Shown here in pieces: positions 43,012 through 49,448 of a DNA stretch of 49,979 nucleotides. Made by a program: the position numbers and the translations under genes. Under the pieces are notes generated by a model. That model searched no databases. It was given only the letters and a program-made list of their open reading frames with translations, and was not told the origin of the DNA. The DNA comes from a bacterium (GTDB lineage: Bacteria > Patescibacteriota > WWE3 > 2-01-FULL-39-13 > JAACPI01). Position 1 is the stretch's first letter. Each line of letters starts with the position of its first letter. Location: contig JAACPI010000006.1 in NCBI GenBank assembly GCA_009995545.1, positions 1-49,979 on the forward strand, in the 5' to 3' direction.

Positions 43012-44160
43012 ATGTTAATTAAAGCAAATATAGATAAAATAGCCAAAATAAAAGTTATAGGTGTGGGTGGTGCCGGAGGAAATGCCTTAAATTCTATGAT
43101 AACTCAGGGAAATATTGTAGGTGTAGACTTTATGGCCATTAATACCGACAAGCAGGATTTAAATATTAATAAAGCAGATGAGATTTTACAGATAGGTACA
43201 CAGTTAACTAATGGTTTAGGTAGTGGGGCCTTGCCTGAAATTGGGAAAAAGGCTGCTGAAGAAAGTGTTGAGGAGATAAAAAAACATTTAGACGGCTACG
43301 ATATGATCTTTATAGCCGCTGGAATGGGCGGAGGAACCGGTACCGGCGCCAGCCCTGTTGTGGCCAAGTTAGCAAGGGATTCCGGAGCTTTAACGGTGGC
43401 AGTAGTTACTAAGCCCTTTAAATTCGAAGGATCTACTAGACTTCAGAATGCTGAGGAGGGAATTTTAAATTTAAAAGACAATGTAGATGCCCTTATAATC
43501 ATTCCAAATCAAAAACTTTTAGAAGTAGAGCAAAAGTCCCTGCCCTTAAAAGAGGCTTTTTTACTTTCAGATAATATTTTAACATTTGGTGTAAAAGGGA
43601 TTTCAGATTTAATAGTACATCCTGGCTTAATTAATGTTGATTTCGCAGACGTTAAGACAATTATGAAAGACGCCGGTTCCGCTTTAATGGGAATAGGGAC
43701 AGCAAGTGGAGAAAATAGAGCCGAAAAAGCAGCACAACAAGCTATTCACAGTCCCTTACTAGACGCCAAAATTACTGGGGCGACAGGGATTTTAATTAAT
43801 ATAACTTCCGACCCTAGTTTAACCTTAGAGGAAGTACAAAAAGTTTCAGAGTATGTGGTTGCTGCAACAGGTACCGAGGTTAATGTTATCTTAGGAGCTA
43901 ATCCAGACGATGACTTAAAAGATACTATAAATGTAACAGTTATAGCTACTGGGTTTGAGACAGAGTATTCTTCTGGTTTCGCCGGAGACTTTTCACCCAA
44001 TGTTTTTAAGCCTGCTTTAAAAGATGCCGATCCAGAAGAAATTGCTAACACATCCTCGGAAAATGCTAAAGATAAAGATGTAGATCTAGATTTTATTGAC
44101 GATGAGGATACTTCCGATAAAGATCCTTACAGAATTCCCCCGTTTTTAAGAAGAGGTTAG
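43012..44160 (+). CDS. ftsZ: Cell division protein FtsZ
   Basis: [36 protein letters not shown]-terminal [12 protein letters not shown]. Confidence 0.98.
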
Positions 44161-44161
44161 C

Positions 44162-44560
44162 ATGCCTAAAAAAATACTTAATAAACTTACAACAAGAGCA
44201 TCCTTCGTTTTTTTTACTCTAATAGTATTTATTGCTACTGGGGCCTTAACATACAGGGCAAGGAGATTTGATAAAATCTACCCCAATCCTTTAGGCCCAG
44301 GGGCTGAACTTGATCGAGATGCCTGCAACGTTTCTGCAAACGTTGGACCTTGTAAAGCCTATATTGAAAGATATCATTTTGATAAAAATACAGAAACTTG
44401 TGAACAGTTTATCTGGGGAGGCTGCGGAGGTAGTGTTCCTTTTGATTCTTTAGAGATGTGTAAAAATACTTGTGAAGTAGTTACTAAAACTACCTCCAAT
44501 CAAAATAGCGTATATTCAGTATATACTAAGTATATACTACCTTACATCTCTCCAAAATAA
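44162..44560 (+). CDS. Membrane-anchored Kunitz/BPTI-domain protein
   Basis: One N-terminal TM; CNVSANVGPCKAYIERYHFDKNTETCEQFIWGGCGGSVPFDSLEMCKNTC with Cys spacing 8-15-7-11-3 (BPTI 8-15-7-12-3); GPCKA reactive loop. Confidence 0.92.
   Translation: MPKKILNKLTTRASFVFFTLIVFIATGALTYRARRFDKIYPNPLGPGAELDRDACNVSANVGPCKAYIERYHFDKNTETCEQFIWGGCGGSVPFDSLEMCKNTCEVVTKTTSNQNSVYSVYTKYILPYISPK
44518..44539. repeat. Perfect tandem duplication of 11-bp palindromic unit AGTATATACTA
   Basis: AGTATATACTA AGTATATACTA; each contains the palindrome AGTATATACT. Confidence 0.85.
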
Positions 44561-44604: not shown

Positions 44605-44827
44605 AGTGTTAAGCGTAAATCAAACGTATTGTAAAAGCACTAAAGGAAGAAACCTTTTTTAGGGATTAGAACCTTTCGGGAAAGCCCGTTATAGCTATAT
44701 AAGTGTCCTATTTTAAAGATATTGTGTCTTTAAATGGAAATTAGAGTGGTACCGCGAGATTTAAGCCTCTCGTCTCTATATTATTCTGGTTTTTACTAGA
44801 ATGTGTAAAGACTAGAGGCTTTTTTTA
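44605..44827 (+). ncRNA. T-box riboswitch leader upstream of ileS
   Basis: T-box AGAGTGGTACCGCG at 44743-44756 (UGGU pairs with ACCA of tRNA-Ile); Stem II-like GGGAAAGCCCGTTATAGC; antiterminator partner CGTCTCT; terminator follows. Confidence 0.92.
44765..44827 (+). terminator. Rho-independent terminator of ileS T-box
   Basis: GCCTCTCGTCT ... AGACTAGAGGC followed by TTTTTTTATTT. Confidence 0.88.
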
Positions 44828-44850: not shown

Positions 44851-47706
44851 ATGTGTTGTTTTAAACAAATAGACCCAAAATTAGATTTAGTAAGAGTAGA
44901 AGAAGAGATAAGATTGAGGTGGAAAAAACGGGACATCTTTAACAAAGTAAACGAAGTCACTAAGGACCTTAAAAATTGGGTTTACTACGATGGTCCTATA
45001 ACCGCAAATGGTCTTCCACACTATGGTCACGCTATAACTTGGACAATGAAAGACGTTGTGCCAAGGTATAAAACCATGCAGGGTAACTATGTAAGTAGAA
45101 ATATGGGCTGGGATTGCCAGGGAATCTTAGTTGAATATGAAGTTGAAAAATCTTTGGGTTTTGAAGAAAAGGGTGATATTGAAAAGTATGGTATAGATAA
45201 ATTTAACCAAAAGTGTCGTGAGTCTGTTCTTAAATTTAGATCCTCAATGATAGATTACGAAACAATGCTTGGTAGGTGGATAAATCAAGATCAGTATTCC
45301 ACAATGGATTCCAACTATATCGAGAGTATGTGGTGGTCTTTTAAGGAATTGTTTTCTAAAGGTCTTTTGTACGAGGGTTACAAAGTTGTGGCTTACTCTA
45401 CAAGAGCTGGTATGACTCTTTCTGATCATGAAGTAGCTGATGGGGGATACTCTGAAATAACCGATACCGCTGTTACTCCTAAGTTTCCTGTTAAAGGCCA
45501 GAAAGAAACTTTTATGTTAGCCTGGACAACAACTCCTTGGACCTTGCCCGGAAACCTTCTATTGGCAGTAGGGGAGCAAATTACCTACATAAAAGTAAAG
45601 TATAAAAATGAATACTTTATTATTGCTAAAGATGCTTACAAAAGAATATTTAAAGAAGGGGAATCTGAAGTTATCTCAGAAATGCCCTCTTCAGAAATTG
45701 TTGGTTTAGAATATGATCCGCTATTTAGTTATTACCTAGACAGAAAATCTAATGGGGCTTTTAAAGTTATATATGCTGACCATGTTAATACTGAAGATGG
45801 TACGGGTATTGTACATTTAGCCCCCTATGGTATGGAAGATTTTGAGATATTTTTAAAATTAAAAATGCCTCTTTTTGACTATCTTAATGACGAAGGTAAA
45901 TTCAAAGAAGAAATTAAGGAGTATTCCGGAATGTTTTATAAGAAGGCTAGTAAATATATAATTCAGGATTTACAACAAAAAAATCTAATGTTTTTTAGTG
46001 AAGATTACGCACATCAAATGCCTATGTGCTACCGGACTCACACCCCTTTAATTTATAGACCTATTAAAAGTTGGTATCTTAATGTCGAAAAAATAAAACC
46101 TAAATTGTTGTCTGAGGCTAAAAAGGTGAATTTTCCTCAAGAGGACATGAAAAAGCGTTTTACTAATTGGATTAAAAATGCCCATGATTGGTCACTAAGC
46201 CGTCAAAGATATTGGGGTACCCCTATGCCTATTTGGAGAAATGTTGTTGATGAGTCTGACCTAATAGTAATAGGTTCTTTTAAAGAGCTTTCAGAGCTTT
46301 CCAAAACACAGCTGAACGAAAATTTTGACCCACATAAGCCCTTTGTAGATAATATAGAGATAAAGACTGGTAAGGGAACTTATCGAAGAATTTTGGATGT
46401 CATAGATGTTTGGTATGACAGTGGGAGTATGCCTTTTGCCCAATACCATTATCCTTTTGAAAATATAGATGAATTTAAAAAGGGTTTTCCTGCTGAATAT
46501 ATCAGTGAGGGAACTGATCAACTAAGGTTATGGTTTTATACTATGTTTTTATTAAATGTAGCTTTGTTCGATACTTCTCCCTTTAAAAACGTTTTAGTAA
46601 CTGGAATGCTTGGTGATGAAAAGGGTAAAAAAATGAGTAAGAGTAAGGGTAACTACCCCCCAATTGAAGAGGTATTTAGCAAATATGGTGCCGATATGCT
46701 TAGATACTTTTTGCTAAAGTCGGGGGTTGCAGGGGGAGAACCTTCTCGTTTTTCTTACCCGCTTTTAGAAGAAACAAGAAAAGAGTTTTTTACAATGCTG
46801 TGGAATAGTTACAGATACTTTGTAACCTACGCGGGTGAATTTAAGCCAGGCCAAGTTTTAAACAAGAACAAACTAGACGTTATAGACTCTTGGATTTTAA
46901 TTAGGCTTAATCAAACAATAAGTCAGGTTACTTCAGACTTTGAAAAATACGAAGTTCAGTCTGCCACAAGAAATTTAGCCCCTTTTGTAGAAGACTTATC
47001 TACCTGGTATATACGTCGAAGTAGAGACCGAATTTCCGAAAATGAACCCTTAGCAGTTCAAGTTCTATACCAGTGTTTAAATAGCTTTTCTATTTTATTA
47101 GCGCCCTTTTTGCCTATGTTATCAGAAGAAATATACTTAGGCGTAAATAAAGAGCTTTTAAAAGAATCTGTGCATTTGGAATCCTATCCAAAAGCTGCTG
47201 AGGTTACAGAGGACGACTTAAAGTTAATTGAGGACATGAAGTATGTTAGAAATATTTGTTCTTTGGGAAATTCCTTAAGAAAAGAGAACAATCTACCTGT
47301 AAGACAGCCTCTTAAATCTATTACGGTAATCAACAAGCCCGTTAAAGAAGAACTTTTAGCGGTAATTAAAGATGAGCTAAACGTTAAAGAAGTGTATTTT
47401 GATACTAATGTTCCCAGTGGTGAAAATCTAGTAAATATCGAACAAAATGGAATTACTGCTTATATGGATACTGCCCTTTCTAAAGAGCTTATATTAGAAG
47501 GTGATTTTAGAGCTTTAGTAAGATATGTTCAGGGTCAGAGGAAAGAATTAGGGTTAAATGTGGTAGATAAAATCGATTTAGTTTTAGAAGACACTAAAAC
47601 AAACAAAAATATACTAGCGATGTATGAAAAAGAATTATCCAGTAAAGTAGGCTCAAAAAATATCACTTTAGGGGATAAAAATAGTGTCTTGTTGGTTAAA
47701 CATTAA
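44851..47706 (+). CDS. ileS: Isoleucyl-tRNA synthetase
   Basis: YYDGPITANGLPHYGHAITWTMKD (HIGH); KKMSKSKGNYPP (KMSKS); TTTPWTLPGN editing domain. Confidence 0.97.
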   Translation: MCCFKQIDPKLDLVRVEEEIRLRWKKRDIFNKVNEVTKDLKNWVYYDGPITANGLPHYGHAITWTMKDVVPRYKTMQGNYVSRNMGWDCQGILVEYEVEKSLGFEEKGDIEKYGIDKFNQKCRESVLKFRSSMIDYETMLGRWINQDQYSTMDSNYIESMWWSFKELFSKGLLYEGYKVVAYSTRAGMTLSDHEVADGGYSEITDTAVTPKFPVKGQKETFMLAWTTTPWTLPGNLLLAVGEQITYIKVKYKNEYFIIAKDAYKRIFKEGESEVISEMPSSEIVGLEYDPLFSYYLDRKSNGAFKVIYADHVNTEDGTGIVHLAPYGMEDFEIFLKLKMPLFDYLNDEGKFKEEIKEYSGMFYKKASKYIIQDLQQKNLMFFSEDYAHQMPMCYRTHTPLIYRPIKSWYLNVEKIKPKLLSEAKKVNFPQEDMKKRFTNWIKNAHDWSLSRQRYWGTPMPIWRNVVDESDLIVIGSFKELSELSKTQLNENFDPHKPFVDNIEIKTGKGTYRRILDVIDVWYDSGSMPFAQYHYPFENIDEFKKGFPAEYISEGTDQLRLWFYTMFLLNVALFDTSPFKNVLVTGMLGDEKGKKMSKSKGNYPPIEEVFSKYGADMLRYFLLKSGVAGGEPSRFSYPLLEETRKEFFTMLWNSYRYFVTYAGEFKPGQVLNKNKLDVIDSWILIRLNQTISQVTSDFEKYEVQSATRNLAPFVEDLSTWYIRRSRDRISENEPLAVQVLYQCLNSFSILLAPFLPMLSEEIYLGVNKELLKESVHLESYPKAAEVTEDDLKLIEDMKYVRNICSLGNSLRKENNLPVRQPLKSITVINKPVKEELLAVIKDELNVKEVYFDTNVPSGENLVNIEQNGITAYMDTALSKELILEGDFRALVRYVQGQRKELGLNVVDKIDLVLEDTKTNKNILAMYEKELSSKVGSKNITLGDKNSVLLVKH

Positions 47707-48878: not shown

Positions 48879-49448
48879 ATGTCAAATCTATATTGTGTTT
48901 TAAAAATTAAAGACAAGCAGTATTTTGTTACAGAAGGAGATATTGTAAAAACACACCCTATAACAATAGAGGAACCTATACAAATACTTTTACTAAGAGA
49001 TAACGAAGAAACATATTTAGGAGATCCTGTTGTAGAAAATGGTGGAGTAGAAATCTCTGTTATTGGTGTAAATAGAATAAAAACAGATGTTCGTAGGTAC
49101 AAATCTAAAAGTAGATATAGAAAAAATAAGTCTCATTCTCAAGAGTTTTCTATACTTAAAATAATAAAAATTGGATCTAAGCTTAAAGGTGTAAATATAA
49201 CAGTAATAAAAGAGGACGAGGAAACCAAAGAGGTCTTAGTAAAAAAGACTGCTGAAAAAGAGGTTAAGGAAGTTAAAGAGGTTAAAGTAGATACCTTAGG
49301 TTTTTCCACTAGAATTATAACCGCGCTGACTAAGAATAAAATAAACACTGTAAGTCAACTAGCAGATTTGTCTAAAGATCAAATCATTGCTTTAGATGGA
49401 TTAGGAAAGAAGTCTGCGGAAGAAATACTAAATAAATTAGGTAAATAA
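48879..49448 (+). CDS. rplU: Ribosomal protein bL21 with C-terminal RpoA alphaCTD-like helix-hairpin-helix domain
   Basis: N-terminal L21 (VLKIKDKQYFVTEGD...KSRYRKNKSHSQEF); C-terminal LGFSTRIITALTKNKINTVSQLADLSKDQIIALDGLGKKSAEEILNKLGK (nt 49293-49442). Confidence 0.87.
   Translation: MSNLYCVLKIKDKQYFVTEGDIVKTHPITIEEPIQILLLRDNEETYLGDPVVENGGVEISVIGVNRIKTDVRRYKSKSRYRKNKSHSQEFSILKIIKIGSKLKGVNITVIKEDEETKEVLVKKTAEKEVKEVKEVKVDTLGFSTRIITALTKNKINTVSQLADLSKDQIIALDGLGKKSAEEILNKLGK

What the first reader, a model, noticed from the sequence alone, without database searches (positions are those of the whole stretch)
44162..44560. BPTI/Kunitz-type serine protease inhibitor, membrane-anchored, one nucleotide after ftsZ
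Seen directly: a 132-aa protein with positive-inside N-terminus, one TM helix, and an extracytoplasmic segment with all six Kunitz cysteines. Spacing is 8-15-7-11-3 versus 8-15-7-12-3 in bovine BPTI, and the reactive loop GPCKA (P1 Lys, P1' Ala) is identical to BPTI. Kunitz domains (PF00014) are overwhelmingly metazoan and uncommon in bacteria. Inference: a surface-displayed trypsin-like protease inhibitor, possibly protecting a small epibiotic cell or its division site from host or predator proteases. Placement in the dcw operon would make it co-expressed with FtsZ.
Basis: partly seen in the sequence, partly recalled or inferred. Interest (0 to 1): 0.88.

Follow-up and report, generated by a model that had tools for sequence, protein, structure and literature searches.

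The report
Kunitz inhibitor fused to ftsZ-adjacent microprotein
A very small bacterium carries, directly behind its cell-division gene ftsZ, a gene in which an animal-type protease inhibitor (a Kunitz domain) has been joined to a tiny membrane protein that its relatives keep at the same place without the inhibitor; the inhibitor belongs to a little-noticed prokaryotic branch of the family also seen in Bacteroidota and Woesearchaeota.

Summary
The 132-aa ORF at 44162-44560 has one TM helix and a complete Kunitz domain: PF00014 54.6 bits against a cut-off of 21, E 1.3e-14; predicted Kunitz fold, best Foldseek match TFPI KD1; P1-P1' Lys-Ala as in BPTI. Two results change the picture. (1) The 8-15-7-11-3 cysteine spacing marks a prokaryotic 'short-loop' Kunitz group (WGGCxGxVPF) found as small lipoproteins in Bacteroidota and as domains in Woesearchaeota proteins. 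A tree puts the window domain inside it (96/90), so it is not an animal contaminant. (2) The TM segment is the orthologue of an undescribed 34-60 aa membrane microprotein that relatives in the class carry between ftsZ and ileS, without Kunitz. A profile built without the window ranks this ORF first of 811 frames (E 1.3e-5). The window protein is a lineage-specific fusion of a resident microprotein and a Kunitz domain, probably acquired laterally. Most likely function: a surface-displayed substrate-like inhibitor of external trypsin-like proteases. Adjacency to ftsZ comes with the microprotein and is weak evidence for a septal role. Inhibition, target and disulfides are untested. Bacterial Kunitz domains are known (one tested, from Acinetobacter). 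New variant of a known kind.

The parts
44162..44560 (+). ORF of 132 aa: TM microprotein module fused to a Kunitz/BPTI domain
44162..44305 (+). N-terminal module (residues 1-48): single TM helix (about 13-31) and YRARRFDKIYP interface motif; orthologue of the microprotein that lies between ftsZ and ileS in the class
   Evidence: profile built without the window ranks this ORF first of 811 frames, E 1.3e-5
44318..44476 (+). Kunitz domain (about residues 53-105): six cysteines, P1 Lys65, P1' Ala66, short loop WGGCGGSVPF
44477..44557 (+). 27-residue C-terminal tail, no relatives found
43012..44160 (+). ftsZ, immediately upstream (1-nt gap; likely translational coupling)
44620..44780 (+). T-box leader of ileS (full length, 50.3 bits, below Rfam's 93-bit cut-off, E 3.2e-10, with GUGGUACCGCG core)
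44784..44817 (+). terminator-like hairpin with T tract at the end of the T-box leader; possible end of the ftsZ-Kunitz transcript
   Evidence: pattern match only
44851..47706 (+). ileS, the downstream neighbour of the microprotein in relatives too

Best explanation
Structure and origin (shown by sequence): the gene is a two-part fusion. Part one is a resident, vertically inherited single-TM microprotein whose ancestral place is between ftsZ and ileS. Part two is a Kunitz domain of a prokaryotic short-loop branch, most often met as small Bacteroidota lipoproteins and probably acquired laterally (direction inferred). Mechanism (inferred): translated right after FtsZ, the chain inserts N-in/C-out. 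The domain folds outside with three disulfides, helped by membrane-anchored DsbA-like proteins encoded in the genome. Its exposed loop (GPC-K65-A66) plugs the active site of a trypsin-like S1 protease by the standard substrate-like mechanism and shields the cell surface from proteases of a host cell, neighbour or predator.
For: Kunitz identity: PF00014 54.6 bits, PDB matches, Kunitz fold with TFPI KD1 and the KD2-trypsin complex among the top five Foldseek hits. Reactive loop: P1 Lys, P1' Ala, the trypsin-type pair. Conserved scaffold with variable P1 across relatives (K, E, F, L, R, N), as expected of inhibitors with differing targets. Prokaryotic branch: 12 short-loop domains share invariant V-P-F and 11-residue spacing; split supported 96/90, 95% of bootstrap trees. 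Relatives look extracytoplasmic: lipobox N-termini in Bacteroidota. Fusion: microprotein without Kunitz directly after ftsZ in G001, G004, G005, G006, G007, G009, G014, G015 and directly before ileS in a further family; leave-window-out profile E 1.3e-5. Disulfide machinery: two DsbA-like proteins with CPFC/CPAC and N-terminal anchors. A bacterial Kunitz domain with P1 Arg has been shown to inhibit factors Xa and XIa (PMC11511053).
Against: No inhibition, localisation or disulfide data. No VKOR found to reoxidise DsbA, though the genome is 92% complete and other oxidants are possible. The C-terminal flank of the TM is also positively charged, so orientation is not certain from this sequence alone. 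Several Kunitz proteins of animals bind channels or receptors instead of proteases (dendrotoxin-Kv1.2, mambaquaretin). The domain is seen in only one genome of the class, so its benefit to the organism is not shown by conservation.
Confidence: 0.62

Rival explanations
1. The inhibitor acts on the cell's own envelope proteases: it is tethered beside the membrane to restrain one of the genome's two HtrA-like S1 proteases, for example at the division site.
For: Two trypsin-fold proteins with N-terminal membrane segments are encoded; the gene lies right after ftsZ.
Against: HtrA-like proteases are over the cut-off in 12 of 14 control genomes, none of which has a Kunitz domain, and 47 class relatives lack the Kunitz domain. 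P1 Lys suits trypsin-type S1A specificity rather than the small aliphatic P1 of HtrA (established knowledge, not tested here). Relatives differ in P1, which suggests variable external targets.
Confidence: 0.13
2. The domain is a binding module (adhesin or receptor/channel ligand on a host cell), keeping the Kunitz fold but not protease inhibition.
For: Non-inhibitory Kunitz proteins are common in animals (dendrotoxins, mambaquaretin among the hits); a small symbiont-like genome could need surface binding.
Against: The reactive loop is the canonical GPCKA and P1' is Ala, unlike a decayed loop.
Confidence: 0.17
3. The fusion is recent and nearly neutral: the microprotein does the work and the Kunitz domain is a passenger.
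For: Found in one genome only of 48 in the class; the 27-aa tail has no relatives.
Against: All six cysteines, the loop and the core residues are intact in a domain at most 51% identical to its found relatives, which implies maintenance under selection; GC and GC3 match the surrounding genes, so the fusion is probably not very recent.
Confidence: 0.06
4. Contamination or misassembly placed an animal or Bacteroidota gene here.
For: Draft genome of 16 contigs with no close relative held.
Against: The ORF is continuous in frame with a locus-specific microprotein orthologue between ftsZ and the T-box/ileS, the domain is of the prokaryotic branch and base composition is native.
Confidence: 0.02

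Closest known systems
Kunitz/BPTI inhibitors (PF00014, MEROPS I02): BPTI, TFPI, APPI, smCI, boophilin
   Same: Six-cysteine framework, predicted fold, GPC-K-A reactive loop as in BPTI
   Different: One residue shorter between Cys 4 and Cys 5 (11 instead of 12), WGGCxGxVPF in place of YGGCxGNxNNF; anchored by a TM microprotein; bacterial
Short-loop Kunitz lipoproteins of Bacteroidota (Chitinophagaceae L004, Flagellimonas L008/L009, Saprospiraceae L011) and Woesearchaeota Kunitz proteins (L007, L032)
   Same: Same spacing and VPF signature, 36-51% identity, extracytoplasmic by their N-termini, one Kunitz domain
   Different: Mostly lipobox-anchored single-domain proteins; not in the dcw cluster; P1 often E, L or F
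A. baumannii F6W77 / KABP1-5 (PMC11511053)
   Same: Bacterial Kunitz domains; KABP1 shown to inhibit factors Xa and XIa; basic P1
   Different: Five domains in an exotoxin-annotated protein of a pathogen; no membrane microprotein fusion
Pacifastin-like domains in CPR bacteria and Myxobacteria (PMC13388995)
   Same: Another animal-type cysteine-rich protease inhibitor reported from small CPR genomes
   Different: A different inhibitor family; also untested for inhibition
Kazal-like plus Kunitz lipoprotein in another genome of the phylum (L002, G091)
   Same: Kunitz domain with IPF short loop and lipobox anchor in the same phylum
   Different: Marginal PF00014 score (21.3 bits on DNA search, 19.2 as protein); P1 Phe; not at ftsZ

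Membership tests
Kunitz/BPTI domain (PF00014) | Profile match above the curated cut-off | tested here: met
   54.6 bits vs 21, match 1-53/53
Kunitz/BPTI domain (PF00014) | Six cysteines in Kunitz order with near-canonical spacing | tested here: met
   8-15-7-11-3, one residue shorter than BPTI in the fourth interval, as in 11 prokaryotic relatives
Kunitz/BPTI domain (PF00014) | Kunitz fold (beta hairpin plus C-terminal helix) | tested here: met
   AlphaFold2 model pLDDT 82, Foldseek to TFPI, boophilin, APPI, BPTI; prediction only
Kunitz/BPTI domain (PF00014) | Disulfides 1-6, 2-4, 3-5 | not testable with these tools
   Implied by the fold; needs mass spectrometry
Kunitz-type serine protease inhibitor (MEROPS I02 function) | P1 after Cys 2 with small P1' | tested here: met
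   GPC-K-A
Kunitz-type serine protease inhibitor (MEROPS I02 function) | Tight inhibition of an S1 protease | not testable with these tools
   Assay needed
Prokaryotic short-loop Kunitz group (defined here) | 11-residue interval and VPF signature, forming one group in a tree | tested here: met
   Invariant V, P, F in 12 rows; split 96/90. Only 51 columns and 32 sequences
ftsZ/ileS membrane microprotein (defined here) | Single TM followed by a [YWS][RK]A...D motif, located next to ftsZ and/or ileS | tested here: met
   Leave-window-out profile E 1.3e-5, first of 811 frames; position conserved
FtsL-type division protein (considered for the microprotein) | Family profile match | tested here: not met
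   Only one of three homologues scanned has a hit, sub-threshold (FtsL 16.5 vs 42.45 bits); the tails look too short for a coiled coil

The most novel reading that the evidence does not exclude
The microprotein is an undescribed membrane component produced together with FtsZ in this class, and the fusion displays a protease inhibitor at the growing septum or new pole, so that an epibiotic cell protects its division or attachment site from host proteases.
Probability: 0.12. Interest if true: 0.85.

Novelty: new variant of a known kind. Interest (0 to 1): 0.62.

Why it matters
It shows how a very small genome gained an animal-type inhibitor: by fusing the domain to a resident membrane microprotein at the end of the division cluster. 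It points to a prokaryotic branch of Kunitz domains across Bacteroidota, DPANN-type archaea and CPR-type bacteria that could hold new protease-inhibitor specificities and bears on where the family arose. It also exposes an undescribed, widely kept microprotein next to ftsZ and ileS that can be tested.

Tried and rejected
Viral contigs, phages and plasmids: no relatives, so no sign of mobile carriage. Two alignments were too diverse for pattern search; for the third I used two smCI-derived rows edited towards the window, as search seeds only, so its hits are biased towards that look-alike motif; confirmation was by tblastn with the window domain, and the Pfam-based surveys found further short-loop members independently (L027, L028, L032). 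G200 (L003) and G891 (L033) hits look false or marginal (stops in frame; poor Kunitz pattern). VKOR: not found in the own genome. Weak microprotein-profile hits in other classes (E about 1e-3 to 1e-2, mostly inside long ORFs) look like chance TM matches and were not used. Contamination and metazoan origin were considered and rejected. Papers on Kunitz with Patescibacteria or Woesearchaeota: none in the held library.

Full report
Observation. The ORF at 44162-44560 (+) is there as described. It encodes 132 residues, begins one base after the ftsZ stop codon with a plausible ribosome-binding site inside the end of ftsZ, has a hydrophobic stretch at 13-31 and six cysteines spaced 8-15-7-11-3. PF00014 matches all 53 positions at 54.6 bits, E 1.3e-14. 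phmmer against the PDB returns Kunitz domains, led by smCI and TFPI. The AlphaFold2 model from 12 relatives (pLDDT 82) has the Kunitz hairpin and helix, and Foldseek ranks TFPI KD1 first (E 1.4e-5, TM 0.74), with BPTI and APPI among further hits. The domain is single-copy in an 872-kb, 16-contig genome estimated 92% complete; the window is its whole contig 8.

Context. Pfam confirms a dcw cluster: MraZ, RsmH, PBP, FtsW, MurG, FtsA, FtsZ; then come the Kunitz gene and an IleS-type synthetase. Between the Kunitz gene and ileS lies a T-box leader (44620-44780, 50.3 bits, E 3.2e-10, below Rfam's cut-off of 93 but full length and with the T-box core), ending in a terminator-like hairpin. So the Kunitz gene probably belongs to the ftsZ transcript, and ileS has its own control.

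The anchor is a conserved microprotein. In same-order genomes the stretch just after ftsZ holds short ORFs of 44-60 aa with one TM and a [YW][RK]A..FD.YY-like motif (G001, G004, G005; a looser version in G006), overlapping or nearly touching the ftsZ stop. In other families of the class 34-48 aa versions lie between ftsZ and ileS (G007, G009, G014, G015). In yet another family they lie directly before ileS, away from ftsZ (in G019 ftsZ lies about 3.5 kb upstream). A profile built from the other 14 sequences alone ranks the window ORF first among 811 stop-to-stop frames, E 1.3e-5; with rows from other orders only E is 0.005, still first. Position, TM and motif agree, so the N-terminal 48 residues are this microprotein, and the Kunitz domain is an addition. 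None of the 47 other class genomes has a Kunitz domain by a profile of the short-loop group. Neither Pfam nor NCBIfam names the microprotein in the members scanned.

The domain belongs to a prokaryotic branch. A scan of one genome for each of 85,462 species found 11 relatives: nine Bacteroidota, one Woesearchaeota archaeon, one Phycisphaerales. Two kinds appear: multi-domain proteins with canonical 12-residue spacing (L012-L016), and proteins with one domain of 11-residue spacing and WGGCxGxVPF (L004-L011, L027, L028, L032, window). In the latter V, P and F are invariant. In a 32-sequence tree the short-loop domains form one side of a branch (96/90; 95% of bootstrap trees), the window among them; with 51 columns the inner order is unresolved. 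P1 varies (K, E, F, L, R, N) on a conserved scaffold. In Bacteroidota these are mostly small lipoproteins by their lipobox; in Flavobacteriaceae the gene directly follows an LVIVD-repeat lipoprotein gene.

Frequency. Above the Pfam cut-off: 1 other genome of 383 in the phylum (marginal), 5 of 397 Bacteroidota (one with a broken frame), 2 of 240 in the Woesearchaeota phylum, one doubtful. Sporadic presence in unrelated phyla fits lateral transfer; direction is not shown.

Mechanism. Shown: family and predicted fold, intact loop, anchor, location in the genome. Inferred: C-out topology (several homologues have short basic N-termini and acidic tails; the window protein's own charge bias is ambiguous), oxidative folding by the two anchored DsbA-like proteins (no VKOR), and substrate-like inhibition of an S1 protease. 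P1 Lys points to trypsin-like enzymes. Own S1 candidates are two HtrA-like proteins, but these are near-universal and relatives manage without Kunitz, so an external protease is more likely. A bacterial Kunitz domain with P1 Arg has been shown to inhibit factors Xa and XIa (PMC11511053).

What ftsZ adjacency means. It comes with the microprotein, which in one family stays with ileS while ftsZ is elsewhere. It makes co-expression with FtsZ likely but is weak evidence for a septal role.

Novelty. Kunitz domains in bacteria are known, and pacifastin-type inhibitors were reported from CPR genomes (PMC13388995). New here, as far as the held library shows: the short-loop prokaryotic branch, its presence in this phylum, and the fusion to an ftsZ/ileS microprotein.

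Noticed in passing
L039-L042, L048, L049, L052, L053 after ftsZ; L060-L065 and L068 before ileS (e.g. L060:1483-1632): Undescribed 34-60 aa single-TM microprotein with [YWS][RK]A...D motif conserved next to ftsZ and/or ileS across the class; no Pfam or NCBIfam family in the members scanned.
   Followed up: partly
window 44620-44780: Divergent T-box leader before ileS, below Rfam's gathering score (50.3 vs 93 bits) though E is 3e-10.
   Followed up: partly
window 48879-49448: Ribosomal protein L21 fused to an RNA polymerase alpha C-terminal-like domain.
   Followed up: no
L002:1003-1638: Lipoprotein in another genome of the phylum with what looks like a Kazal-type segment (CPLAHSPVCG..) followed by a divergent short-loop Kunitz domain; the Kazal part was read by eye, Pfam gave no hit.
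   Followed up: no
L006, L008, L009, L027: Conserved gene pair in Flavobacteriaceae: LVIVD-repeat lipoprotein followed closely by a Kunitz lipoprotein.
   Followed up: partly
L031:1408-1650: A Bacteroidota copy of the short-loop Kunitz lipoprotein gene is broken by a frameshift (or sequencing error).
   Followed up: no
L032: Woesearchaeota-phylum protein of about 1069 aa (983 in the fetched stretch) built of many cysteine-rich repeats with one short-loop Kunitz domain (P1 Lys) and a C-terminal TM: a possible archaeal surface protein.
   Followed up: no
L012, L016: Chitinophagales giant secreted proteins mix Kunitz domains with Kazal-like segments (read by eye).
   Followed up: no
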